From NCBI GenBank assembly GCA_002189035.1, contig CM007992.1, forward strand, positions 2,170,001-2,234,000: a stretch of DNA of 64,000 bases, given 5' to 3'. Positions 34,420 through 56,543 of this stretch are shown here, one piece after another. The position numbers and the translations under genes were made by a program. The stretch comes from Utricularia gibba (lineage: Eukaryota; Streptophyta; Magnoliopsida; Lamiales; Lentibulariaceae). The notes below the pieces were generated by a model. It did not search any database and was not told where the DNA came from. It saw only the letters and a program-made list of their open reading frames with translations. Position 1 is the stretch's first letter; each line of letters starts with the position of its first letter.

Positions 34420-34770
34420 TCAGTATGAGGGACTGAAGGAAACGAGTTCGCGATAGTTCTGCCATGGCCTCACATACACAACAGCCGTGTATTTCTTTGA
34501 CACGCCGCCTTCATTGACGGCGATTACGATGCGGTAATTCGTTCCGGCGACAACCTGCGACTCCGCGCTCAAGATTTTCACGAGAACGATAGATCTCTGA
34601 AACTTCCTGTTCTGCGCCTCCACCGCGAATGTGGCGGCCTTTCGCACATCGGGATCATTCTGTGGGTTCCTGATCGGTCTGTAGCCTCCGAGGATCCTCT
34701 GGCCTTGGGTCATGACGCAAATCGACGCCGAGAAGAGTAGGAAGAGGAGAAAGCGAGATTTGGGGGACAT
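34420..34770 (-). CDS. Phytocystatin (cysteine protease inhibitor), intact single exon
   Basis: A 116-aa protein with a true ATG at 34,770. Residues 1-23 form a secretion signal. The three inhibitory contacts of cystatins are present: the N-terminal GG (28-29), the QVVAG loop (72-76, matching QxVxG) and the P-W pair (102-103). The plant-specific helix signature reads ATFAVEAQN (46-54), a variant of LARFAVEEHN. There is no C-terminal extension, so it should inhibit papain-type but not legumain-type proteases. Length and exon structure are normal for short phytocystatins. Targets may be endogenous senescence or storage proteases, or those of herbivores. No frame damage was seen despite dense transposon surroundings. 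Confidence 0.95.
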   Translation of the reverse strand: MSPKSRFLLFLLFSASICVMTQGQRILGGYRPIRNPQNDPDVRKAATFAVEAQNRKFQRSIVLVKILSAESQVVAGTNYRIVIAVNEGGVSKKYTAVVYVRPWQNYRELVSFSPSY

Positions 34771-34796
34771 TTTCCTTCTGCGTCTGTCCTACGGAT

Positions 34797-36617: not shown

Positions 36618-37146
36618 TGATAGGGGATAAACCGGTCAGATATAATCGGTTCCTAAAAGGCTTCCAAAAGAGATTCCGAGGGGATAACGCCAGATGACAG
36701 ATCGGCATCTGTCAGAAATCTGACAGGTATGTCCATATGATACAGTTTGAAAAGCAGCCGAATTATGGCATGACAGGCTGCCGATATCTGAAAAGCGAGA
36801 TCGTATAGCAGGAGCAGAAAGCAACCGATATTTGCAGACACCAGAATTCAGTTAGCGTGAGCTCTCCTATAAATAGGAGGAATTATGATGAAAGGGGGGT
36901 TGGACTCAAAAAGATTTCTTCAAGTTGTATTCTCCTTTTCGCGACCTCCATCTAGTGAAACTCTTTTCCGGCGAGCTCCGGCAGCTCCGTGGTTTTTCCG
37001 CTCTCCGGCGGTTTCCACGTAAAAAATCCTTCCTCACTCTTATTTTAATCGTACCAACCGTGAAGAAGGTGACTAAGTGTGGCATTCCCGACCGCGCCTA
37101 TCACCTAAAATTGGCCTCTCACCGGATACCGATTTCACCCATAACA
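36618..37146 (+). repeat. Tat element 5' LTR
   Basis: 529 bp, TG...CA, preceded by AAATG. It contains TATAAATAG (about 36,870) as a probable promoter TATA. The only length difference from the 3' LTR is a G6 run (36,894-36,899) that is G5 in the other copy. Confidence 0.95.
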
Positions 37147-37186
37147 TATTTGGTGCCCACCGTGGGGCTACATTCCACAGTCCCAT
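37147..37186 (+). other. Primer-binding-site region of the Tat element
   Basis: TTTGGTGCCCACCGTGGGGC lies within a few bases of the LTR end, the place and general form of tRNA primer sites in plant gypsy elements. The matching tRNA was not determined. Confidence 0.6.
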
Positions 37187-37258
37187 TTGAGAAACTCACA
37201 CGAACCACTCGTTAATCACGAGTCATGGTGGAAAATAGCACAGCCACCGACCCAGCTC

Positions 37259-38460
37259 ATGACAGAAGTGCCGACGCGCATGACCCCCGGCCTTATGATC
37301 ACTAGTAGGGAGCAACTGAAGGCCCTACTAACGGAAATCCTTACCGATCTCCGGTCACTTTCAGGTCTCAACTCCAACGCTCAGGAGAGAACACCCGAAA
37401 CCGCACCACGAACGGGGAAGCAACCTTTTATTCCGGAGTACCCCCCAGATACGGAGACTGAATTCGAAATAGAGGAGGAGATGCTGCGGAGAAAGAGGCG
37501 CAACCAAGTCGTGTATGAGCCAAGAACTGATAGGGAAACATGACTAGCAAAATCTTGGAAGAAAGAGAAGAAGAGTTGAAAAGAAAGTTAGACCAGATCC
37601 GCGAAAGGAAAAGATTTATCGACAAGCGGTCGTTGACAGGAAGAAGAGAGGATAGAGGCTTCAGGGACGTTTTCGATCAGAACGTATCCACTGGGAGAGG
37701 AGATGTTTTGGCCGATATTGCTTTCGGCTTGAAGAGTGGAGTTGAGGGAGCAGCTGAAACCACAACGCTGCGTTTTGACCCTTTCTCGGACGATTTAGTC
37801 GGAGAAGAGCCCGAGAGAGGATTCAGAGTCCCAGACGGATTACCCATGTATGACGGAAAAGGGGACCCCATATCGCATGTAACTGACTTCGATATGAGGA
37901 TGTCCACGGTTCGACATTCAGAGGCCATGAAGTGTAAGCTGTTTGCGTGGCATCTTTTTGGGAGTTAGTACTGCTCTTCACTACCCGATACGCTGTTAAC
38001 ATTGAAGCTCCACCTTCAAAGGCATCACTATACTCTATTTGTTACGATCACCGAAAAGAGAGCTTGCGATGATTCATCGATCGATTCAACTGCTTGGCGC
38101 AGGATGTCCAATTGGATTTAAAAGAAAGGGTGGAAATAATGAAGCGGGCCTTAGGAACGTCGAAATTGGGACAGAGTCTATCGAAGTCCCCACCAAAGAA
38201 TCTCGGAGAATTGCTAGGAAAAATCATGAAGTACATCCGAGTGGACGACAACCTCAGGACCGAGATGAAAAGCCGCGTGGAGATTCGTCCAGTTCCACAG
38301 CAAGAGACCCAACTTAACCGGGGCCCAGGCCGAATAAGCGCCGTGAAGTATATCAGGTCGAACCAACCAGAACAGATGCCTACTGCGAAATACACAAGAC
38401 TACGGGGCATGATACTGCCCACTGCCGACTGATGAAGAGGATGATCGAGCAATATCATGC
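37259..38460 (+). pseudogene. Tat gag (broken)
   Basis: A gag-like N-terminus (ATG 37,259, TSREQLKALLTEILTDL) is joined through a shift at the GGG run 37,533-37,535 to a coiled, charged region (EEREEELKRKLDQIRERKR). The conserved RVPDGLPMYDGKGDPISHV follows, as in gag cores. A TAG at 37,966, a further shift and a TGA near 38,070 break it. The remainder reads DVQLDLKERVEIMKRALG, then a zinc-type motif with C, H, H, C residues (YCEIHKTTGHDTAHC, about 38,381-38,425). Confidence 0.85.
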
Positions 38461-38469
38461 TGGTGGGGG

Positions 38470-40395
38470 ATGAACAACGCGATACGGAACCCCGCATCAA
38501 TGACGGACCGGAAAAGAGGACGTAACGAGCGAACGGGGAACGAAGGGAACCGATATCTGAAATTCCCTCCGAAACCGGGGATGGCGAACTCGCGAGCCAA
38601 CAGGGAAAGTTCACGGAGTGCCCATCAAATGCAGGTTAGTCCCCCCTATATTCGGGAAATCCATATGATATCCGGAGGAACCGAGATGGATGTGTCCAGA
38701 AAGGAACAGAAGAGATATTTGGATGAAGTCAGAAGAGGAGAAGTTTTTGAAATCGGAAATGGTCCGATTGAGAAAGCTGCTTGGGAAAAGGAAGAGATCA
38801 GCTTCTCCAACAGAGACGTCTCGGTTGGCCCAGCCGCAAGTGATGAGCCCTTGGTGGTGTCAGGAATATGTGGGAGCACCAAGGTAAGGAGGATTCTTAT
38901 CGATCAAGGATCCTCGTGCAACATCATGAAGAAGGAAGTGGCCGAGTTACTGGCATCATCTAACGAGGGAAATATTCGCCATGTGTGCATGGAGTTGTAC
39001 GCATTCGACCAACGGGCCGTGCAAACTATCGGGAAAATAACCTTTCCCGTAACATTCGGAGCGGCAAGGCGGAGCCGAACCGAGAGGTTGGAATTCTTAA
39101 TCCTAGATTCAGAGATCTCGTACAACATCATCCTCGGGCGACCCGACATCAACCAATTCGGTATGTTACCCTCCACTGTGCATTTGAAAATCAAATTCCC
39201 AACATCGAAGGGCATTTGCACGATGAGTATCGACCAACCCACCGCTCGGTCCTGTTATGTATCTTCCTGTCGGGACCCCTGCGCGAAAAAGTCGAGAGTG
39301 ATGATTGTAGAAAAGGAACCCCCTAGACAAGCAATGGAACCAATAGGGTACAAGTCAGTGCAACTAATACCAGAAGATGCGCAGAAAGCCACCTGCATCG
39401 GTGCCAATCTAGATGCCGGATTCGAGAAAAGGTTAGTTGAACTTTTGATGAAGAACACCGATATTTTTGCCTGGACTGCTGCGGATTTTGTAGGCATTGA
39501 TCGATCCGTCGCTGAACATCACATTGATACCTACCCGAGGGCAAAACCGGTTCGGCAGAAGCAACGACATTTCTCAGAGGAAAAGTGCCGAATTATCAAA
39601 GAAAAAACAAGAGAGCTCTTGGAAGCTGGTTATGTGAAGGAGATCCAGTACTCCGAATGGGTAGCCAACCCGGTCGTCGTCCCGAAGCCTGGGGGAAAAT
39701 GGAGGATGTGCATTGACTTCACCGACCTCAACGCCTGTTGCGAAAGGGACCCTTATCCTTTGCCAAAGATCGACAGGCTAGTGGACGCCATTGCCGGATC
39801 ACGATTTCTGAGCACCATGGATGCCTATTCGGGGTATCATCAAATTTTCATTGCAGAGAAAGACCAACCGAAAACCACCTTCTACACTAAGGGTGGGGTT
39901 TACTGCTACGTGGCAATGCCTTTCGGATTGAAGAATGCTGGGCGACTTACCAGAGGTTGGTAAATAAAATATTCTCTTCTGAAATCGGTACCTCAATGGA
40001 GGTGTATGTGGACGATATGATCGTGAAATCTATGAATAAAGAAGACCATTTAGCGTATTTGGATTCGTGTTTCTCTTTATGTAGGTCATACGGGTTAAAG
40101 CTCAACCCATTGAAATGTTGCTTCGGGGTGCAAAGTGGAAAATTCCTTGGGTATTACGTATCGGAGAGAGGAATCGAGGCTGACCTCGAGAAGATTAAGG
40201 CAATATGCGAAATGCAACCCCCGAGGACAATCAAGGAATACCAGAGCCTCACGGGTAAATTGGCTGCCCTCAGCAGTTTCATATCTCGGTCAGCCGATAA
40301 GTCGGCATCCTTCTTCAAGGTCTTGCGAAAGGGAAGCGCTTTAGAATGGAACGAGGATTGCTTTTGAGAAACTCAAGGAATATCTCTCATCACCC
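38470..40395 (+). pseudogene. Tat protease and reverse transcriptase (broken)
   Basis: 38,470-39,963 encodes protease, with the RRILIDQGSSCNIM motif near 38,890-38,930 whose catalytic aspartate is present. The RT begins with HFSEEKCRIIKE and includes WRMCIDFTDLNACCERDPYP and FLSTMDAYSGYHQI. It ends at a stop caused by a shift in the GGG run 39,940-39,942. 39,957-40,367 continues the RT with the catalytic YVDDMIVKS box and GKFLGYYVSERGI. A small deletion near 40,365 and a stop near 40,397 follow. Confidence 0.9.
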
Positions 40396-40404
40396 TAGCT
40401 TCTT

Positions 40405-41598
40405 ATGGCTCCAAAAGTAGGGGAGCCCTTAGGACTATATCTATCTATATCGCCCGTTGCAGTCAGCGCAGTCTTGACAACCATCTCGGTAGATAATCAC
40501 TTGCCGGTGTATTATGTAAGCAAAGTTTTGTTACCAGCCGAAACCCGCTATACGGTGACAGAAAAATTCATCTTGGCTCTGAAGATGGCAGCCACCAAAT
40601 TGAGGTCATATTTCCAAGATCGGCATTTTGTGGTATTCACCAATCAGCCTCTGAAGAACATCCTGTCTCGTCCAGAGATTTCCGGAAGGGTTGCCAAATG
40701 GGCAGTTGAATTAAGTACAATGGATATTAAGTTTAAGTCGAGAACAACAATCAAGGCCCAACCTCTTGCTGATTTTGTGGTCGAAATGACTAGGCCTATA
40801 GACCGTTTCATGGAAGCCAATGACCGATGGGCTATGTACGTGGATGGCTCAACATGCAACGGCGCCGGAGGAGGAATAGACATTAGGACCTAAGAAGGAG
40901 AGCCTATTTGTATTACGGTGAAATTCTTATTCCCTGCCTCCAACAATGTGGCCGAATATGAAGCCCTGATTGAGGGAATGAAAATTTCCAAGGAGCTGGG
41001 AGTGGCAGAACTCAGTGTTTACACCGATTCGCGACTTGTGCAAGGGCAGTTTTCGGGAGAATACGAAACCCATGACTCCCTCATGGCTCTGTACCGTGTC
41101 CAAGTGAAGGAATTGGCTAAAACCTTCAAGGAGTTCACCCTGTCGCACGTAGCACGTGAGAAAAACGGGTCCGCGGATAGCCTCGCCCGATTCGCAGCAG
41201 AGTTTCACGAGTTAAGGGAAGGAAGTGTGACAATTCGGTTGCGGGACCAACCTTCGGTGAGCCTACGAGCTGTGAATCATATCACCCAGCAACCGGGAAA
41301 CGATGTCTCTTCACAACTGAGTCCCCTTGATGACTGGATGACTCCCTACATCCGGTATTTACAAAATGGGAAAACCCCATCTGATAAGCCGAAAGCCCGA
41401 CAATTAGAGACTAGAGTGCAGAGGTATACGTTAGTGAATGGAATTCTCTATCGCAAATCCTTAGATGGACCCTTATTGAGGTGCATCGGGGCAAAGCACT
41501 CTCAAGAACTCATAACCGATCTACATGAGGGTGAATGTGGCAGCCATATTGGAATACGATCCTTATGCAGGAAAGTTCTAAGGACCGGGTACTACTGA
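40405..41598 (+). pseudogene. Tat RNase H plus second (plant-type) RNase H domain
   Basis: The first, RT-linked RNase H reads PVYYVSKVLLPAETRYTVTE and later VVFTNQPLKNIL (to about 40,690). After the linker ADFVVEM, a second RNase H-like fold begins with WAMYVDGSTCNGAGGG (about 40,830) and continues with NNVAEYEALIEGMKISKELG, YTDSRLV and REKNGSADSLARFA, carrying the D-E-D residues typical of the added domain in Tat elements. A TAA at 40,891-40,893 interrupts it in frame. The stretch ends in the integrase zinc motif (H-H-C-C), where TGA 41,596-41,598 replaces an expected tryptophan. Confidence 0.9.
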
Positions 41599-42567
41599 CC
41601 AACTATGAAGCAGGATATTACCGATATGGTGAATAAGTGCAAAGTGTGCCAATACCATGCAAGTATACCAAGAAAACCAGTAAGCAAACTGACCTCTCTT
41701 CCACTCTCCTGCCCCTTCGACCGATGGGGGGTGGACATAATGGGGCCTTTCCCCCACACCTCGGGTCAAAGGAAATTCGACATCGTGGGTGTCGAGTATT
41801 TTTCCAAGTGGGTAGAGGCTGAAGCTATGTCAAAGATCTCGGAGGAGACCGTTATCCGATTTCTGTGGAAAAACATCTTCACCCGGTTCGGAATGCCTCA
41901 AGAGCTAGTGACTGATAACGGAACTCAATTCGCCGGGGGAAAAATGGATGCATTCCTGGATAAGTATTCAGTCAAGCACAACTTCACCTCGGTATATCAC
42001 CCGCAAAGCAATGGCCTCACAGAGGTAACGAACCGAACGCTTCGACTAGGTATGAAGACTAAGCTCGAAGATTTTGGGGGTCATGGGCAGATCGCTTAGA
42101 TGAGGTACTGTGGTCATATCGCACTACCCCTCGAACCACCACGGAAGAGTCCCCATTCTTATTGGTTTACGGTTCAGAAGCCATATGCCCTATCGAACTG
42201 ACCTTGAAGAGCTACCGGGTAGAGGGTAGAGCATTATAATAAAGAAGAGAATACTAAACTCCGAAAACTGGAATTGGAGCTGTTGGAAGAGAAGCGACGA
42301 AGCATCTATAGCCAACTAGGGGCTTATCAGAGAAGAACGGAGAAGAGTTACGACAACTCGGTATCCCCAAGGGAATTCTCCGAGGGAGATTTGATGCTCC
42401 GAAGCATCCAACCACAAAGACACGTCGAGAAATTAGACCGCAACTGGGAAGGCCCTTATCGGATTTCAAGGGTGATCGGAAAAGGAGCATATCGCCTGGA
42501 ACAATTAGATGGCGTGGAACTCCCAAGGTCGTGGAACGCATCGCATCTAAGGAAGTTCTACGCCTAA
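41599..42567 (+). pseudogene. Tat integrase (broken)
   Basis: It continues the zinc motif (CKVCQYH), then the catalytic core with GVDIMGPFP, VTDNGTQFAGG and the E of SNGLTEVTNR, so D, D and E are all encoded. The frame breaks at the G5 run 42,076-42,080. The next frames give the C-terminal core and 42,274-42,567 gives the GPY/F module (NWEGPYRISRVIGKGAYRLE) ending SHLRKFYA. No chromodomain follows, as expected for Tat. Confidence 0.9.
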
Positions 42568-43368: not shown

Positions 43369-45606
43369 CTAAAGTGCTGTAGGAGATGGGGGATTAATGG
43401 GAGGATTGGTAGAGGAACCGGTATGTCGCTCCATCATGTCCCTTAACTTGGCGTCATTCTCTCGCCCTATCCTCGCCCGAATTAGCGCAATCAGCCGCTC
43501 CCGATCAGCTTCGAACCCAAACTCCGGGGCCTGGAAAGTATCCGCGATAACATCAAGCATGTTCTCATCCTTCGTCAAGGGGTTTATCCTGTCGAAGCGC
43601 GGATCCATGATTGAAAGCCCAAATTCCCGACTGAACTGTCGTCTCTGACGGTATAGAAGTAAGCCGATTAAATCTCCTACATAGATATCAGAGAGTTCGG
43701 TAAAACAGGCCGAGTTGACAAAGTCATCCAGAAGACCCTGCCGAGATGCTTGTCGATCAAGTAATTCAGCCTCCAATGCTGAAATGCGGCCCCTGGCATG
43801 CTCTAACTCCGCTTCTACCTCTTCAAATCGGACTTTGAAGCCCTCTCTCTCTAATTTAGTGTCGTCAACCGCCTTTCCCATTTCCTTGATCACATTCCGC
43901 AGTTCTTCCTCCTGGCGGCTGCGTTTCCCTAAAACAGTTTTCAGCGAACTCCCCTCCTTCTCCAACAACTTTATCTGGGCGCTCTGAGCCACAACTTGGG
44001 CTTGAACCCGAGAGACTTCCTCCGATTGACAGCCAATCTCTCTAACCATTCCCCACCCAAGAGTCAGAGTCTGAAAGAATATTCCAAGTCAAGGACCGAC
44101 TATTTAGAATTTAGTAGAGGAAATGGGATACGTACCTGCCAGATCCCTTCAAGTACCGTCTCCGGCTGAACACCCGAGGTACTAGACATAGCTCCATCCA
44201 GGATTCCCCTTAGTTCAGCTGGAACTGAGGGTAGAGGAAGCACCCGGTTGTCCCTTACTTCTACGAGGGTAGAATCCCTCTGTAACTCGATTGGAAGAGC
44301 CGATGTTGAAGCACCAGCCGAAAAGAATCTTGCATCGGGAATAGGAGTATCGCTGAGATCGGGTGATGGAGGAAGTTTCTCTTTCGTTTTCCCGGCTGAA
44401 GGACGGGAAGTCAACTCCCGGGTCTCGGAGACTTCTACTACTTGATCTTCCCCCGAGGAAGGATCAGCAGCGTCCAACTGAGCTCCAATCGTATCAGCCT
44501 GAAAGAAAAACCGAAAAAAGGTTATAATCGGGAATTCGCAGTAACTGTTAAATAGGAGACAGACTAGTGCAGGGGAGGGCTCCTCAGGTTCCTACATCCT
44601 CTGCATCTCGGCAGAGAACCGCACCATCACCGAATCTTCCAGAGAGCTTCTTCGAGCCATCTCTTCAGCTGAAAACGAAAGTAGGAAAAGCAATAAGGCA
44701 TAGTGCCGATTCTGAGACTCGGGAAAGCTGAACCCGACTACCTCTTTGCCTCTTTGAGGGTTTGTGCGCAACTGCCTTAACCCTCTTCTTTTTCTTGGGG
44801 GCCCCGGTTTGAACAGGTGGGGGAATCGGAGGTGAAGCCGAAACAAGAGGGAAGGATGAAGAGGGGCTAAGAGGAAGGCTCCTCGAATCGGTGCTGTCGA
44901 AAGGAATGATATCGAGCAAATGGAGGTCTTGAAAACTACCGATAATACCTGATCTTTTCAAAGACTCACTCGAGAACATCAAGGCACGAGACTCATACCG
45001 AACTGAGCCCCGACTAAGCCTCTCATAAAGGACTTCACGCGATTCGGAAGAAGACCGATACGCTCCCAAGATCTTGATCTTGAAAGGAGTTGGGGGATCG
45101 ACTGGGAAGTTCCACCGAAAACCCAAAGGGGGAGCTATCCAAACGAAAGAAGACCACCAATCATGATGGGTATCGGGGGCTTTAACAACAAAGTTGGGGT
45201 TATCTTTGAATCGGCGGAATTGAAAGTGAGATCGGCCATCCATCGGGGACTTAGCTTTACGAACGGCTATCTTGAAGAGATGACAGAAGTCTACCAGAGT
45301 CATAGCCGGATCCATACCGGCTGAATAGAAAAGGAAAGTAGTAAAGCGGAATATGGAATTCGGGGCGAGACAATAAATCAGAATTGCAAAGGTATAGAGA
45401 AAACGGACTATTAAAGGGTAAAGAGGGAAGCGTAAACCGCTTTCGAAATAGGCAAGTGGAATTGGGAGACTGAACGGAGGCAGGGGGTCCTCACCTACCC
45501 CCCAAGGGATTTTAGTATCCCAAGCATGAGAAAGCTGGTACTCATCAGGGATCGAGTACCGAATGCGTAGGGAGGGGATGTTTAGTTCACTAGATCTCCT
45601 ACCCAT
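43369..45606 (-). CDS. Antisense multi-exon gene of the Tat element (putative gypsy-type transposon protein, PF04195-like)
   Basis: It lies opposite to gag-pol between integrase and the 3' LTR. Predicted exons on the minus strand: 45606-44742 (ATG 45606), 44668-about 44596, 44498-44136 and 44070-43369, with donors AG|GTAGTC, AT|GTAGGA and CAG|GTACGT and acceptors TTTTCAG, TTTCTTTCAG and TTCTTTCAG. Exon 1 carries YFESGLRFPLYPLIVRFL and a tryptophan-rich region, as in the plant 'putative gypsy type transposon' family, ending in the basic PKKKKRVK, a possible nuclear signal. Exon 3 is Ser/Pro-rich and acidic. Exon 4 has a coiled coil of about 100 residues (LLEKEGSSLK to ALEAELLDRQ). The exon 1-2-3 phases are off by one, so exon 2 or one base is uncertain. 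Function unknown; antisense extra ORFs occur in Tat relatives. Confidence 0.75.
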
Positions 45607-46090
45607 TTTTAAAGAAGCCCAAAACCCTAGAACGAGACAGGAGTCAGGAAGGGGGAAGGACTTAGAATGACAAGGGGACCCATCAAAAATCCCAAAAGAC
45701 CGAACGGAAAAGACGAAGAATCGAATGATACCTGGAAAATTGGCAGTTTCCGACGGATATCGTGACAATCGAGCAGCGGACGAGTGTGATGGAGCATGGA
45801 GGGCACAAAACTCTTGCAGGCAACAAAGAGGGCAAAGTAAAGAACTGACGCAAAGGGCACTTATTTTTACCGGAAAGGTTAGGGAGACGAAGCGTCGTGA
45901 CGTTTGGGGTACCCAGAATGAGTGGGAAAAAACGTGGCGTGCTTATGAGCCGACGCATGGCAGAGATATCGGAACAAAGCGGTTTGTGGCTCATGCGAAC
46001 AAGGCGGCAACTTGGAAGTCGGCATTGTGGTGATTCTGATTCCCCGATTTATCCTAGAAGGGCCAATATCGGCAAATCAGAGGGCTTGAA
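45607..46090 (-). promoter_or_regulatory. Upstream region of the antisense gene
   Basis: These 480 bp between the antisense ATG and the 3' LTR must hold the antisense gene's leader and promoter, and also the sense polypurine tract just before 46,091 (AATCAGAGGGCTTGAA is the best candidate). The minus strand is pyrimidine-rich with possible leader introns. No firm TATA box was found. Confidence 0.35.
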
Positions 46091-46618
46091 TGATAGGGGA
46101 TAAACCGGTCGAAAATAATCGGTTCCTAAAAGGCTGCCAAAAGAGATCCCGAGGGGATAACACCAGACGACAGATCGACATCTGTCAGAAATCTGACAGG
46201 TATGGCCATATGACACAGTCTGAAAAGCGGCCGAATTACGGCATGACAAGTTGCCGATATCTGAAAAGCGAGATCGTATAGTAGGAGCAGAAAGCAACCG
46301 ATATTTGCAGACACCAGAATTCGGTTAGCGTGAGCTCTCCTATAAATAGGAGGAATTATGATGAAAGGGGGTTGGACTCAAAAAGATTTCTTCAAGTTGT
46401 ATTCTCCTTTTCGCGACCTCCATTTAGTGAAACTCTTTTCCGGCGAGCTCCGGCAGCTCCGTGGTTTTTCCGCTCTCCGGCGGTTTCCACGTAAAAAATC
46501 CTTCCTCACTCTTATTTTAATCGTACCAATCGTGAAGAAGGTGACTAAGTGTGGCATTCCCGACCGCGCCTATCACCTAAAATCGGCCTCTCACTGGATA
46601 CCGATTTCACCCATAACA
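46091..46618 (+). repeat. Tat element 3' LTR
   Basis: 528 bp, TG...CA, followed by AAATG. The counterpart of 36618-37146. Most differences are transitions. Confidence 0.95.
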
Positions 46619-48323: not shown

Positions 48324-48791
48324 TTGGGGCCTAGTGGGGCAATAGATCTACGTAGATCCTTGAGGCCACCGGCAACGCATCCGATGAAAGAAGACTTCCG
48401 TTTGATGTCTCAAACTTCGACCCACGTGAGTTTCTACATCAACCACGACACGCGTAAGTCCTGTGTTGTGATTTGTCTGGAGCGCCAAGCCAACTATCGA
48501 AGTTCTGCATATTTTGGTGGATGATCGCGGCGGGGACGCCAAGAACCGAAGGGCCACGTGTTTCAAGTGATCGCCATTTACTTGTGCTCTGTCAAATCTG
48601 CCATCCCTCGAAACCTCCGTACCTCTTCACTTCAATTGTTTCTTATTTTGTCGAATTCGAGACCACCCCCATTTCTCGAACTAATTGGGGTTCATCCATT
48701 TCCTCTCTCTGTTCCTCTCTCATCTGCCTTTCAATCCTATACAGGGGAGTTCCCTTTGTTGTTTCCAGAATTCGGTATGTTTTGTTGACAG
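48324..48791 (+). promoter_or_regulatory. Orphan promoter/leader-like segment with two G-boxes, cut by a copia insertion
   Basis: GC-rich and pyrimidine-rich sequence sits between AT-rich DNA and a copia element. Perfect G-boxes CACGTG lie at 48,423-48,428 and 48,555-48,560, and CTCTCT-type Y-patches at 48,700-48,720. The end reads like a leader with splice-like TTCCAG and an ATG (48,778) just before the element starts at 48,792. No downstream coding exon was found, so a gene may have been beheaded here. Confidence 0.4.
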
Positions 48792-49656
48792 TGATAATCC
48801 AATCAAGGACTCGGCTAAGGCACTGATGGCATCTCTGATTGAAATCAAAGTGAATTACAAAGACAGTCATAATAAAAAAAATAAGAAGAAGAAGGGCAAT
48901 TCAAGAATCTGAGCTTAATCGTCTTAGGCCTGAACCTGAGTTATGGCACAAAAGACTTAGGCATCATCACTATGGCTTGATTAATACCTTACACATCAGG
49001 AGAAGTTTTCTCGTATTTGTCTTCAGTTCAAGCAAATTATCATGTCATTCCCAAAAATTGGCTCAACCGCCTTCCATAAGCTGGATGTAGTGGTCATAAA
49101 TGTGTGTGTATCTATGAATATTGCGACCAATGGAGTAAACATATATTATGTTCTATTTATACATGAATTCTCTAAATATACATGGATCTATCTACTTAAA
49201 ATAAAAATCTGAAATTCTTCACGACTTCAAGATATTAAAACTATTCTAGAAACCTAGAGCGGTAGAAAAATACTTACTTTAAGATCCAAAAATGGAGGAA
49301 AATACTCTTCTATTAAGCTGAAAGATATCTGCAAGGTCAATGAAACCATGTACTAATTCACAACTTCTTGCACACTATAACAAAATGGAATGTGTGAAAG
49401 AAAAAATTAGACCATTATGAATATGGCGAGATATCTCTTATATGAGAAGAATGTACCTTTGCGATTCTAGGAAGTCAATGAACACACTATATATATACTC
49501 AATCACCTACCTACAAAAGGAACGAAAGGAAGAAAATCACCATATGAGCTTTGGTTTAATAAAAAACCAGACCTGAAACATTTAAGAATATTCAAATCAG
49601 TTTGTTACATTCGCAATCCAAAGGAATTAAGGGCCAAGCTGGATAAAAGATCAAAT

Positions 49657-50165
49657 ATATGTGAGCCTCAAGCCTTAAGGTGTGAGGCCAATAATCTAGG
49701 TGAAGTTACTCAGCCCAATGCCCAAGCTAATGGTTAATTAATTTGGTGAAGGAATAAATGCACTTAGGACGACGCATTGACGGTTTAGATAGAGAGAGAA
49801 GAAAAAAACTAGGACCTTCTTCCTCATTGGATTTCATCAAGAATAAGGAGATGTTCTTTCTTTGATCCTTCATCAGGTTTCAATCTCACTTGATTCGCGA
49901 ACAAGGCAATCTTCATGTTATCAAATGCATTGTGTTCTTTTCATAAGTTGAAATCATTTCAGTTCAGCTTGGCCAGTTGATCTTGTAATTAGAGCTTGTT
50001 TGCTCTTGTATCGGAAACGAAGTTTAGTGGATATTTTATATCTTGGTTTGGATTCACCTATGGTTTTCCCCGCAAGGGTTTTCACATTAAAAATTACCCT
50101 GTATTCTTTACAGAATTGCAGATTTTATGGTTTGGTTGCTCTTTTCTCGGTTGCATTACAGGTTG
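49657..50165 (+). other. LTR-like insertion inside copia integrase
   Basis: Integrase sequence stops at ELRAKLDKRS (about 49,655) and resumes at STSKAYHVPN (about 50,185). The intervening 500 bp ends in GGTTTTCCCCGCAAGGGTTTTC and TTACCCTGTATTC, a phrase typical of the leader half of plant copia LTRs. A solo LTR is likely; no target duplication was found. Confidence 0.5.
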
Positions 50166-50184
50166 CCTACCCTTATAGAAAGTT

Positions 50185-52620
50185 GAAAGTACTAGTAAGG
50201 CATACCATGTTCCAAATCTCACCTCTAACACAGTGGAACTTAGTAGAAATGTTGTGGTAGACGAGTCAAAATGTTTTGATTGGAGGAATCTACCCTTTGC
50301 TCCTCAAACGGAAGCATCTATAGTCAATGTTTTCAATGTGTACCCTAAAAATGAAGAAGAATATAATAGTATCTATGATAAGAATGGTCATCTAAACTCC
50401 TATGAACTCTTTACTACCACATGCATCGATGCTAATATATCTATAACTAATATCCTAAATACCTCTAATGACCGTGACATACAATTTGGTGCCAATAAGG
50501 ATGAACTTTTCAACATAGCCAATGAACATCATCTCTTAGTACTTCTCTCAAAGAAAATACAACTACACCTGATACTTTTCATCAAAACCTCCTGCATGAA
50601 CAAAATGAGGAACCATTATAACTACCTAGAAATGATAGTCCGATGAAAAAAGCTTATGAGGAAGCTTTGCATGTTCTTCCAAAAGATTCTGATAATTAAA
50701 TGCCAGATAACAATGGATCAGAAGAACTCTCATAAGATGCCTCATACACAAGAGATGATGAAAACATTACTCCTATATTTCTTCTTAGGCTTATTCCTAG
50801 AAAACTTACGGAAGTGAATGAAGAGTATATGAAAAATCAATCTCATGATTATGAGTCTGATGATAATCTAATTCATTATTTTTAGAGCAACAATTCTAGT
50901 GATAACGAGGATTATCTAAGTGATTGACGTAACACTGGTAAGAAAATATTGGTTTCTTAAAGATATTATTGGCTGCAATCATTTGATGCTGAAGGTCAAA
51001 ACACTACAAAAATTATGAAATTCCTAGAATGAAAGAAATTCATGGTTGATGAACTTAACTCCATCAAAGATCATGACATGTGAGAAGTGGTAGATAAGCT
51101 AGAAGGTGTCAAAGTTTTGAGCTGGAAATGTCTACACAAAGAAAAATTAAATGCTAATGGAACTCACAATAGATTATCTCGCATAGTTGCTAAAGGTTAC
51201 CTCCAAAAAGCTGGTATCAACTACTAAGAGATATTTGTGCTTACGACTTGACTTGACACTATCAAATGGACTATCGCTCTGGCTACTTGTCATAATTGGA
51301 AGCTTCATCCCTTAGACATTAAATGTGCATTTCTAAATAAAGAGCTGCACATATATATATATATATATCACTCTCCCAGTTATGAAATTAAGGATGGAAA
51401 GAAAAAAGTTTTAAAGCATAAGAAAGCTTTCTATGGATTTAAACAAGCACCTAAAGAATGGTATGTTATCATAGATGCCTGCTTTATTGAGTTGGGATAG
51501 ACTCAAAGCAAAAATGATACAATTCTTTATGTCATTGAAATTGTAGTAGGCAAGGTTATCATATCCCTATATGTTGATGACATCTTGATTATTGGTAACA
51601 ATTCTGACATCATTGAAGAACAAAAGACCATGCTGAAAACCCGCCTTGAACTAGTGGACCTTGATTTGACTAGGTATTTTCTTGATATAAAATTCCTGCA
51701 AGAAAAACACTACATATATGTGAATAAAAAATATATATTGAAGACTTACTAGCCAAATATGGAATTCAAGAAGCCAAGGGGAGTTCTGTTCCATTTCCTC
51801 CAAAGATCAAGTTGAAATTCAAAAAAATGCCGAAATTGAATACTCCAATTCACAAAAATTTCAAACACCCCATGGGAGGCCTTCTATATCTAACTACTCC
51901 AAGGCTTGATATCATATTTGCTGTATCACATGTATCCGAATTTATGCACAAACCTTACAATGTGCAAGTAGCTAGGAAAATTTTCAAGTATCTGAAATCT
52001 TCTTCTAATCTTGGCTTATATTTTAAAATAGGAACTAACCCTTCATTGCAAGGATTAGTGGACTCTGATTTTGTAGTTGATGAAGAAAATTGCAGCTCAA
52101 CTACTGATTATTTGTTTAATCTTGGATCAGTAACCTTTGCTTGAAATAGCAAGAAGCAAAATACCATTGTGCAGTCTTCAATTGAGGCCGAATACATGAC
52201 TAGTGCTGTTACTAAAAACCATGCTCAATGGTTAATTAAAATATTTTTGAAGACCTGGCCATCAACATCAAGCAACCATACTCAATGGTCGATTAAAATA
52301 TTTTTGAAGACCTAGCCATCAACATCAAGAAACCCATCATCCTCAAAATTGGAAACAAATTTGCTATAAGTACAATACAATACCATGTGATGTTTGAGCA
52401 TACCAGGCACATAAAAGTTAAGTACCATGTTCTTCAAAAATATGTGAAAGAAGGGTACATCAGACTGGAATACATACCTTCAGAGATGCAAGCTGCTGAT
52501 ATCTTGATGAAATACCTCTTCCCTTCAGATTTCTGCAAGCTGCCGAAAATGTTAGAGTTAAGGAAGAATCCATTAGAAAACATAGAAGATCTTCAATTCG
52601 ATCATAAAGGAGGAATATTA
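50185..52620 (+). pseudogene. copia integrase end, RT and RNase H (broken)
   Basis: 50,233-50,646 is integrase C-terminal linker (VELSRNVVVDESKCFDW). 51,030-51,480 is the RT start (FMVDELNSIKDHDM, LHPLDIKCAFLNKELH) with an in-frame (AT)n expansion at about 51,346-51,368. The catalytic YVDDILIIG lies near 51,570. RNase H follows with GLVDSDF and IEAEYMTSA. Stops occur in every section. Confidence 0.85.
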
Positions 52621-52625
52621 GAAAG

Positions 52626-52880
52626 TGATTATCCAATCAAGGACTCAACTAAGGCATTCATGGTATCTTTGATTAAAAGTAAACTGAATTAGCAAGATAT
52701 TCGTGGTAAGAAGAAGAAAAACAATAATTTTCTCAAGAGTCTAGGTTTAATCGTCTTAAGCACAAAGCAAGTGTAATGCAGCCAAATGTAAAAGTCATTC
52801 TCAGCCCATTAACTCAAGTCCTATCATCTATGGAAGTCAAGGATATAAGGACAACGCAATGGCTCTCTTTGCAAAGCTAA
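52626..52880 (+). repeat. copia 3' LTR (5' part, abutted by Harbinger)
   Basis: It starts TGATTATCCAATCAAGGACT after a purine tract. Its end is obscured because the Harbinger element begins at 52,881. Confidence 0.7.
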
Positions 52881-53892: not shown

Positions 53893-54846
53893 ATGATTGA
53901 TCAAAGTGGATTGCAATAAAAAAGATGGACTGAAGATGAAGAACTACTTCTTGTTTCAGCTTTGTTAAATGCTAGTATTGACCCCATTAGTGGAAATTCA
54001 CAGAAGGTAGACTCTTTTTGGGCAAGAGTTGCTACTTATTATTATGATGCAAGAGTTGGAAGACATCGTGATATTGATGCTTTGAGGAAAAAATGGAGCA
54101 ACTTGAATGGAGATGTCCAAAAGTTTGCTGGTTGTTATAATCAGGTCTCAGGTAGGGCAACAAGTGGAATGAATGGGCATGACTATAAACGAGATGGTGC
54201 ACCCCTCTTAAAGCAACAGACAGAGAAGGATTTTGGTCATTTGAACTGCTGGGAAATTTTGAGAAAGGAATCAAAGTGGAAAACATTAATTGTTTAAGTT
54301 TGTTTATATTAGTTTTCTCACTTATATACAATATGAATTTTTTTGTGACAATCTGTGAATCTTGGAAGCAAGAATTCATGCAAGAAAAGGCGTAATGAGA
54401 ATGAAACAGAGAAAGAAATGGAAACTCCAAAAACACAACATGATGTGCGTCTTACGGGCCAAAAAGCAGCCAAGCGAATGCGTAGTGGTGGCAGCAGTCG
54501 CTCAAGCTCCAACCCAGACTCAGAACTAAGTAAATACACTGGACATGTTGCTGGACTACAGAATGCTATTAAATCTCAAACTGGAGCATAGGATAGGTAT
54601 AATGAACTTCAAACATTAAAGGAAATTAGGAAGCTCTGTTCTCTCAAGTTGGATGATTGCACCATTGAGCAATGGAACTTGTACAACGCAGCAATGAATA
54701 GATTACAAGTTATGATGCAATCTCCATCAAATATGAATTCTACTGCTTTTGCAACAACACAAGGTGATCATAGTCAAGTAGGTGCTGAATATATTGTGAA
54801 CTTGGGAGATGATTCATGTGACTCAAATCCGATTCACTATTTTTAG
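53893..54846 (+). pseudogene. Harbinger ORF1: Myb/SANT-like DNA-binding protein (broken)
   Basis: The ATG at 53,893 follows a TTGTAG acceptor. Codon 9 is TAA; then RWTEDEEL, LLNASIDPISGNSQ, FWARVATYYYDAR, LRKKWSNLNGDVQKF and GCYNQV give the SANT-like domain of plant Harbinger ORF1 proteins. ORF1 proteins help bring the transposase to the element ends. After KWKTL the frame closes, and a non-coding stretch (about 54,298-54,355) suggests an intron. The C-terminal half (54,360-54,846) has the usual GQKAAKR motif and ends SNPIHYF. A TAG-type stop at about 54,589 also occurs. Confidence 0.85.
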
Positions 54847-55026
54847 TTTTTGTATCGTATTTCTGTAGGAAAACAATTATGTTTTATGTAGGAAAGAAGT
54901 TTCTTTCATGGACAAGTAATAGATTTTGCATTTATAAAATTGCTATTTTCATTGAAACATATGTTAGAATTGCATATAATATAAAAAATGGAATATTTTT
55001 AAGTTGTATAAAAATATAAGGCCAAC

Positions 55027-55170
55027 GAATATTTTAAAGCTACAAAATATTTTAAAGCTGTAGAATATTTCAAAGTTACAGAATATTTCCAAGCTGCAGA
55101 ATATTTCAAAGCTGCAGAATATTTTAAAGCAACAGAATATCTTAAAGTTGCATAATATTTTAAAGTAGCA
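55027..55170 (+). repeat. 18-bp minisatellite, eight units
   Basis: Eight consecutive units of consensus GAATATTTTAAAGCTGCA, period exactly 18, with one to four changes per unit. It sits in the gap between the two Harbinger genes, about 85 bp before the transposase ATG. There are no spacers between units. Confidence 0.95.
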
Positions 55171-55253
55171 GAATAATTTACAAATCGAGCCTATAAAAGA
55201 CTATGTGCTCATGATCTTATTTGCATCTCTACATCCAAATTTTATCTTTTTTC

Positions 55254-56543
55254 ATGGATCATCCAAACTTTCCATTCTTCATTCCAGGTGCTATGATGGA
55301 CTTGGAAGTGATAGCTCAAGCAAGATACAATCATATTTTAAATAATTCTGCAAATGGTGAAGGAGGATCTCAGAAATGTCGAGCATCTCGTCGTTACATT
55401 GAGCGTGAACGTGAAGCTGTTCATGCTAGATTGTATCAAGATTATTTTTCAGATCAATCTACATATAATGAAGACATATTTCAGAGACGATTTCACATGC
55501 ATTGTCCTCTATTCCTGCAGATTGTTAATGTTCTCCAACACTCTGATTCTTTTTTTCAAGATAAAATTGATGCTACTAGTCGGGTAAGCCTTTCAAGCCT
55601 CAAAAAATGTACAGCTGCTATTCATATGTTGGCATATGAGTGTAGTGCTGATTGGGTGGATGAGTATATATGTATAGGGGAGACCATTGCACTCAAGTGC
55701 CTACGTTATTTTGTTTTAGACATTTGCTTAAATTTTGAAGAGCAATACATGAGAGCTCCAACTATGGAGGACATGCAACGTTTACTAACCTTTTGAGAGA
55801 CTCGTGGATTTCCTGGCATGCTCGGTAGTGTAGATTGCACGCATTGGGAATAGAAAAATTGTCCTGTTGCATGGCAAGGATTATATTCACGTGGAGGCCA
55901 TCAAAAACCAACTTTGATGTTAGAGGATGTTGCTTCTGCTGATACCTGGATTTGGCATGCCTTCTTTGGAATGCCAGGTTCAAATAATGATTTGAATGTA
56001 TTATTTCATTCTCCTTTATTACAGGATTTTCATCATGGTGTTGCCTCAAGAGTTCAATTTGAAGTGAATGGGCACATGTATTTTTCGGGATATTATTTAG
56101 CTGATGGCATTTATCCTGATTGGCCTTTATTTGTGAAATCAATCACATTATCCCAAGGTTCCAAAAAGAAAGAGTATGCTAGACGTCAAGAGAGCACACA
56201 AAAGGATGTTGAATGAGCTTTTGGTATATTACAAAGTCAATTTGCTATTATGACCACACCTGCAAGAGTGTGGGATCGAGACACACTTGCTGATATTATG
56301 TATGCATGCATAATACTACATAATATGATTGTTGAAGATGAAGGTCATACTATTCCTGCTGCTAATGCTGAAGCTCAATATGATCAAGTGAGAGTTGAGG
56401 AACCAATATTTCATTCCAATGTAGAGCTCAACATGAATTCATTTCTTCTTCCAGTAGCTCAATCTCAAGATTACATTATACATCATCGACTTAAGAATGA
56501 TTTAGTTGAACATTTTTGGGCTAGGTTAGGGAGTCAACAATGA
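55254..56543 (+). pseudogene. Harbinger DDE transposase, single frame with three stops
   Basis: One frame runs from ATG 55,254 to TGA 56,543 (430 codons) without any indel. The N-terminal region has RREIEREREAVHARL-type charge and a helix-turn-helix-like segment (FQRRFHMHCPLFLQIV). The core shows GFPGMLGSVDCTHW, WHAFFGMPGSNNDLNVL, GYYLADGIYPDWPLFVK and KDVE before AFGILQSQFAI. The catalytic residues are all encoded: D at 55,833, D at 55,989, E at 56,211. Stops are TGA 55,794, TAG 55,851 (usually W) and TGA 56,214 (usually R). ILHNMIVEDE and a degenerate tail complete it. Confidence 0.9.

What the first reader, a model, noticed from the sequence alone, without database searches (positions are those of the whole stretch)
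43369..45606. Spliced antisense gene carried by the Tat retrotransposon
Opposite to gag-pol, four exons with good GT/AG borders encode a PF04195-like domain, a basic nuclear-signal-like stretch, an acidic Ser/Pro region and a long coiled coil. Two exons (363 and 702 bp) are phase-perfect. The open frames are much less damaged than gag-pol in the same element, which suggests the antisense protein may be retained. Introns can persist because an antisense transcript is not the template for reverse transcription. Its role is unknown; it could regulate the sense RNA or act in host chromatin. This is the best candidate in the window for poorly described biology.
Basis: partly seen in the sequence, partly recalled or inferred. 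Interest (0 to 1): 0.75.

Follow-up and report, generated by a model that had tools for sequence, protein, structure and literature searches.

The report
Spliced antisense gene in plant retrotransposon
A jumping element in this plant genome carries, on its opposite strand, a real four-part gene with three introns and its own promoter that evolution has protected about as strongly as the element's own replication genes, although this particular copy is broken.

Summary
Opposite to gag-pol, between pol and the 3' LTR of a Tat/Retand-type Ty3/gypsy element (LTRs 36618-37147 and 46091-46618), lies a four-exon gene: 45606-44742, 44668-44565, 44498-44136, 44070-43369. It encodes 677 residues: TRP28 region, basic stretch, acidic Ser/Pro region, 110-residue helix. 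The conserved donor lies 31 bases further on and puts all four exons in frame. The three GT-AG introns recur in about 45 copies down to about 45% exon-1 protein identity, and no intron-free copy was found. Between families dN/dS is 0.14, against 0.11 for pol. A TATA box with conserved start-region sequence lies upstream, in antisense orientation, outside the LTR. So the element carries a spliced accessory gene under selection like pol's. It is not a host-retained gene: frames decay like pol's after insertion, and this copy has a premature stop and a damaged TATA box. Antisense TRP28 ORFs are a known Retand hallmark. The intron structure, which joins ORFs usually listed separately into one gene, was not described in the papers I could read. 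Function is inferred.

The parts
36618..37147 (+). 5' LTR of the carrier element (starts TGATAGGG, ends CATAACA, 5-bp target duplication AAATG)
   Evidence: the repeat finder; LTR alignment (K2P 0.041)
37145..42567 (+). gag-pol, broken into about nine frame segments; RT (38413-39963), aRH-like RVT_3 (40894-41598) and integrase (41599-42099) detected
   Evidence: ORF list; Pfam
46091..46618 (+). 3' LTR
45862..45869 (-). TATA box of the antisense gene: TATAAATA/TATAAGTA/TATAAACA in 25 of 26 alignable copies; TAAAAATA (mutated) in the window copy
45830..45838 (-). conserved CTTTGC/pyrimidine patch 31 nt after the TATA box, the likely transcription start region
   Evidence: start site inferred
44742..45606 (-). 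exon 1: ATG, TRP28 (PF04195) region, ends in basic NLS-like PKKKKRVK...KPSKRQR; 865 nt, phase 1
44669..44741 (-). intron 1, GT-AG conserved; retention truncates the protein at a stop
44565..44668 (-). exon 2 (corrected): 104 nt; carries a premature TAG at 44594-44592 that is in this copy only among family A
44499..44564 (-). intron 2 (corrected): donor CTA|GTCTGT here, CAG|GTTT in most other families
44136..44498 (-). exon 3: 363 nt, phase 0, acidic Ser/Pro-rich, fastest evolving
44071..44135 (-). intron 3: CAG|GTACGT ... TTTCAG, with TTGAC/TTAAC/CCAAC branch-like motif in most copies
43369..44070 (-). exon 4: 702 nt, 233 aa plus stop; 110-residue helix (coiled coil) then helical C-terminal part

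Best explanation
This is the antisense accessory gene of a Retand-type (Tat clade) Ty3/gypsy element. Its true form is one spliced gene of four exons and three introns, read from its own TATA promoter just inside the 3' LTR. It encodes a protein of about 677 residues: TRP28 region, nuclear-signal-like basic stretch, acidic linker, long coiled coil. Most likely mechanism: the antisense mRNA is made and spliced independently of the genomic RNA. The protein enters the nucleus, oligomerises through the coiled coil, and acts in trans on element DNA or RNA to regulate transcription or another nuclear step of the element's cycle. Shown by sequence: gene structure, splice-site conservation, purifying selection equal to pol, conserved promoter motif, decay after insertion, damage in this copy. 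Inferred: transcription, splicing, nuclear location, oligomerisation, regulatory role. I give about 0.93 to the spliced-gene structure and about 0.4 to the regulatory role within it.
For: Splice dinucleotides are kept in 22-26 of about 26-28 copies at all six sites. Exons 1-4 end at the same residues in most of 17 further copies at about 45-72% exon-1 identity, with GT/AG at nearly all readable borders. dN/dS is 0.34 within the family, 0.21 and 0.14 between families; for pol, in a matched subset of copies, 0.24, 0.28 and 0.11. In each exon the annotated frame has the lowest dN/dS of six frames (0.12, 0.07, 0.31, 0.05), and introns show 0.69-0.88. Between families A and C introns keep only 44-60% identity. 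Intron-1 read-through meets a stop in nearly every copy. Unspliced exon 3/intron 3 border: 85 hits, 2 in the reversed control; spliced junctions: 0. The TATA octamer is among the most conserved upstream 8-mers and is followed 31 nt later by conserved CTTTGC. Exon 4 model: helix 9-118, pLDDT mostly 90-98. The basic stretch is net positive in all listed copies. Grande's antisense protein is nuclear and has its own promoter (PMC7264820, PMC11963269).
Against: No RNA data: splicing and expression are inferred. Donor 2 is the weakest site (22 of 26) and in the window family is a poor CCA|GT or CTA|GT. The AF2 model of exon 1 is poor (pLDDT 44.6), so no fold supports DNA binding by TRP28. PF04195 is below cut-off in the window copy. 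No test here separates a transcription role from RNA export, integration or silencing.
Confidence: 0.72

Rival explanations
1. Two or more separate antisense genes (a TRP28 ORF and a coiled-coil ORF, perhaps starting at the conserved ATG in exon 2) lie side by side, without splicing between them.
For: Published surveys list TRP28 and Smc-like antisense ORFs as separate ORFs (PMC11963269). A conserved ATG lies four codons into exon 2.
Against: All six splice sites are conserved while intron interiors diverge. The exon 2 codons upstream of that ATG are themselves conserved. Intron phases match in every family where the borders can be read.
Confidence: 0.07
2. The protein works as a genomic-RNA export or packaging factor (Rev-like, or like the CERV protein of Cer1) and not as a transcription regulator.
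For: A nuclear-type, coiled-coil accessory protein; the Cer1 element uses an accessory protein for nuclear export of genomic RNA (title and abstract of PMC10309623). Selection equal to pol fits an essential step.
Against: No RNA-binding motif was found in the Pfam scan.
Confidence: 0.25
3. The antisense RNA itself matters (dsRNA or interference with the sense RNA) and the protein is incidental.
For: The antisense transcript would be complementary to the 3' part of the genomic RNA; dsRNA regulation has been suggested for such elements (PMC7264820).
Against: dN/dS of 0.05-0.31 per exon in the one protein frame is not expected from selection on RNA complementarity.
Confidence: 0.05
4. A host gene captured by the element, or an element gene now retained by the host at this locus.
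For: It looks like an ordinary host gene: introns, TATA box, own promoter.
Against: 139 matches to exon 1 across the genome. It decays after insertion like pol, and this copy has a nonsense codon and a mutated TATA box.
Confidence: 0.03

Closest known systems
Antisense TRP28 (PF04195) ORFs of Retand elements (Vicient 2025, PMC11963269; Retand ORF4, RIRE2)
   Same: Same place (pol to 3' LTR), same strand, same domain, same kind of carrier element; 97% of recently active Retand clusters have it; Smc-like antisense ORFs also reported.
   Different: There described as ORFs, with no introns mentioned; here one spliced four-exon gene that joins the TRP28 ORF to the coiled-coil ORF, with a conserved antisense TATA box.
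gene23 of maize Grande (Gomez-Orte 2013, read only as cited in PMC7264820 and PMC11963269)
   Same: Antisense accessory gene between pol and 3' LTR with its own promoter; nuclear protein.
   Different: Sequence not compared here; its intron status was not stated in what I could read.
HBZ of HTLV-1 and related spliced antisense deltaretroviral genes (PMC8622228)
   Same: Works like: antisense gene in the 3' part of a retroelement; HBZ is a bZIP (basic plus zipper) regulator that lowers sense transcription; spliced antisense transcripts are reported in related viruses.
   Different: No homology shown; HBZ is bZIP and TRP28 is not; here the promoter motif lies outside the LTR. Convergent at most.
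Ogre elements (Tat clade)
   Same: Tat-clade elements in which splicing is part of gene expression (PMC6317226).
   Different: Ogre's intron is on the sense strand between PROT and RT and is partly spliced; here the introns are antisense.

Membership tests
Retand lineage (Tat clade, Ty3/gypsy) | aRH-type second RNase H between RH and integrase | tested here: met
   RVT_3 (PF13456) 59.8 bits at 40894-41598, directly before integrase; position as described for Ogre/Retand in PMC6317226
Retand lineage (Tat clade, Ty3/gypsy) | Long pol-3' LTR region (2.9-6.6 kb), LTR 315-1194 bp, internal region 7.4-12.9 kb | tested here: met
   About 3.5 kb, 530 bp and 8.9 kb against the ranges of PMC11963269
Retand lineage (Tat clade, Ty3/gypsy) | Antisense ORF with TRP28 domain between pol and 3' LTR | tested here: met
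   21.4 bits in the window (sub-threshold); sister copies over the curated cut-off
Retand lineage (Tat clade, Ty3/gypsy) | RT/INT phylogeny inside Retand | not tested
   No reference set of plant RT domains was at hand
Ogre | Sense intron between PROT and RT, extra ORF in the 5' part | not tested
   The only extra gene examined is 3' and antisense; the PROT-RT region was not tested for an intron
PF04195 Transposase_28 | Score over the curated cut-off of 26.2 bits | tested here: inconclusive
   Window copy 21.4 bits; same-family copies L014, L020, L021 score 27.9, 30.4 and 29.3 bits
HBZ-like spliced antisense retroelement regulator (works like, not a member) | Antisense, spliced, nuclear, represses sense transcription | not testable with these tools
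   Structure and splice sites fit; no RNA or protein data

The most novel reading that the evidence does not exclude
The 'antisense ORFs' of Retand elements are exons of one ancient, three-intron accessory gene with its own TATA promoter, so that a plant LTR retrotransposon lineage carries a spliced antisense regulator analogous in arrangement to HBZ of HTLV-1, under selection as strong as pol. ORF-based surveys split it and underestimate it.
Probability: 0.45. Interest if true: 0.68.

Novelty: new variant of a known kind. Interest (0 to 1): 0.5.

Why it matters
Antisense genes of plant retrotransposons are catalogued as single ORFs (for example at least 250 codons or 600 bp, PMC6317226, PMC11963269), and a 2020 review asked for a search for spliced antisense transcripts (PMC7264820). 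A conserved four-exon model gives the exact junctions, start region and full-length protein to test. It may explain why TRP28 and coiled-coil ORFs occur together, and shows that one retroelement can keep introns over long times on the strand that is not reverse-transcribed.

Tried and rejected
Intron 1 as coding read-through: rejected, a stop in nearly every copy and dN/dS about 0.7. Sense-strand coding as the cause of conservation: rejected, the annotated frame is lowest in every exon; one sense frame per exon is also low (0.17-0.42), as expected for a shared wobble position. Search for spliced retrocopies: none, with a working positive control. AF2 of exon 1: poor, not used for fold search. 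Foldseek of the exon 4 coiled coil against viral models: nothing at E <= 0.001. PDB sequence search: nothing for exon 1 (best E = 0.61), only weak coiled-coil-type matches for exon 4 (best E = 0.0035). The best PF04195 hits in the genome (L001-L008) belong to other families that do not look like Retand and were not used for intron comparison.

Full report
What was checked. The window lies at G000:C4:2170001-2234000 of a plant genome. The finding sits in an LTR retrotransposon with LTRs at 36618-37147 and 46091-46618, a 5-bp target duplication AAATG and an LTR divergence of 0.041, that is about 1.6-2.9 million years at commonly used rates (the rates are from general knowledge). Its broken gag-pol shows RT, an RVT_3 type RNase H directly before integrase, and integrase. 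[quoted passage not shown] An RT tree was not built.

The gene model. The ATG is at 45606 and the stop ends at 43369, on the minus strand. I aligned the region with 29 other copies from the same genome. The conserved donor is GT at 44564-44563: CTA|GTCTGT here, CCA|GTCTGT in most of the family, CAG|GTTT in most divergent families. With it, exon lengths 865 + 104 + 363 + 702 give 2034 nt, 678 codons with the stop, all in phase.

Splicing evidence. The six splice dinucleotides, in the order donor 1, acceptor 1, donor 2, acceptor 2, donor 3, acceptor 3, are present in 26/28, 24/26, 22/26, 22/27, 25/26 and 25/26 copies, while intron interiors keep only 44-60% identity between families A and C. In 17 further copies, about 45-72% identical to exon 1 as protein, exons 1, 2, 3 and 4 end at the same residues wherever they are readable, with GT and AG at nearly all of them. 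Reading through intron 1 meets a stop in nearly every copy. No copy without introns was found: patterns for the spliced exon 3-4 and exon 1-2 junctions gave no match with up to 3 mismatches, whereas the unspliced exon 3/intron 3 border gave 85 matches against 2 for the reversed control. This is what one expects if the genomic sense RNA, never the antisense mRNA, is reverse-transcribed.

Selection. Nei-Gojobori dN/dS for the gene is 0.34 within the family, 0.21 to family B and 0.14 to more distant families. On a matched subset of copies it is 0.32, 0.21 and 0.14 for the gene and 0.24, 0.28 and 0.11 for pol. In each exon the annotated frame has the lowest value of all six frames (0.12, 0.07, 0.31, 0.05), and introns show 0.69-0.88 in the same reading. 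The gene is therefore a protein gene of the element, constrained about as much as pol while the lineage replicates. After insertion it decays like pol: ten copies have 0.82 stops and 1.13 frameshifts per kb in the gene and 0.85 and 1.61 in pol (Fisher P = 0.30).

Promoter. In the 474 aligned bases between the gene and the 3' LTR, the octamer at 45869-45862 is TATAAATA, TATAAGTA or TATAAACA in 25 of 26 alignable copies. It is among the most conserved octamers there; most others of that rank lie next to the LTR, where the polypurine tract is expected. A conserved CTTTGC patch follows 31 nt downstream, the usual spacing of plant TATA boxes to the start site (general knowledge). The window copy reads TAAAAATA. 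With the premature TAG in exon 2, this makes the window copy itself probably silent or truncated.

The protein. Exon 1 carries the PF04195 match (21.4 bits here, below cut-off; sister copies over it) and ends in a basic stretch that is kept in divergent copies. Exon 3 is acidic, Ser/Pro-rich and the least constrained. Exon 4 is predicted as a 110-residue helix at high confidence followed by a weaker helical part. Exon 1 could not be modelled (pLDDT 44.6). No solved structure is clearly related by sequence.

How it probably works. Shown: gene structure, conservation, selection, promoter motif. Inferred: an independent antisense mRNA is transcribed from the internal TATA promoter, spliced, exported and translated; the protein returns to the nucleus, oligomerises and acts in trans on the element. 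Transcriptional regulation is my first choice because the antisense protein of Grande is nuclear with its own promoter and a DNA-binding role has been predicted for TRP28 (PMC7264820, PMC11963269), and because the arrangement resembles HBZ (PMC8622228). A role in RNA export, as reported for the CERV protein of Cer1 (PMC10309623, abstract only), is the main rival. Nothing here decides between them.

What is known and what is new. Antisense TRP28 ORFs are described as a characteristic of Retand (PMC11963269), and antisense Smc-like ORFs are listed beside them. That paper contains no word beginning with 'intron', the 2020 review asks for a search for spliced antisense transcripts, and the 2019 survey predicted ORFs without splicing. 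The four-exon model, the unification of TRP28 and coiled-coil ORFs, and the conserved antisense TATA box therefore seem new, with the caution that Kejnovsky 2006, Steinbauerova 2011 and Gomez-Orte 2013 could not be read. I rate it a new variant of a known kind.

Limits. One genome only; no RNA; the copies are related, so counts of copies are not independent events. Pol blocks were chosen from open frames of the window copy.

Noticed in passing
L022, L023, L029 compared with window 38307-41300 and 43369-45606: Copies whose pol is about 93% identical to the window element carry an antisense gene whose second half (intron 2 to exon 4) is only about 46-75% identical, while exon 1 is 87%: the 3' half of the antisense gene looks exchanged between families.
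   Followed up: partly
L002, L004, L006, L007: The best-scoring TRP28 domains of this genome do not look like Retand elements: in L002 the TRP28 ORF lies downstream of a PIF/Harbinger-type DDE_Tnp_4 ORF on the same strand (L002:47-424), followed by an ORF with a HAD/NIF-like motif (LLIFDMNGVLADIV); the four loci share most of this stretch. TRP28 may have come from, or gone to, a DNA transposon.
   Followed up: partly
L001, L003, L005, L008: A second TRP28 family that does not look like Retand, 86-92% identical between copies over 2-3 kb, with helical-looking ORFs downstream of the TRP28 ORF.
   Followed up: no
window 48787-52727: A decayed Ty1/copia-like element (integrase- and RT-like fragments on the + strand) between imperfect direct repeats 48787-48893 and 52621-52727.
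   Followed up: no
window 53920-56216: ORFs resembling a Myb-like protein and a PIF/Harbinger-type transposase next to each other, with an array of 18-bp repeats (54991-55188) between them.
   Followed up: no
window 34420-34788: Minus-strand ORF that looks like a plant cystatin, outside the 5' LTR.
   Followed up: no
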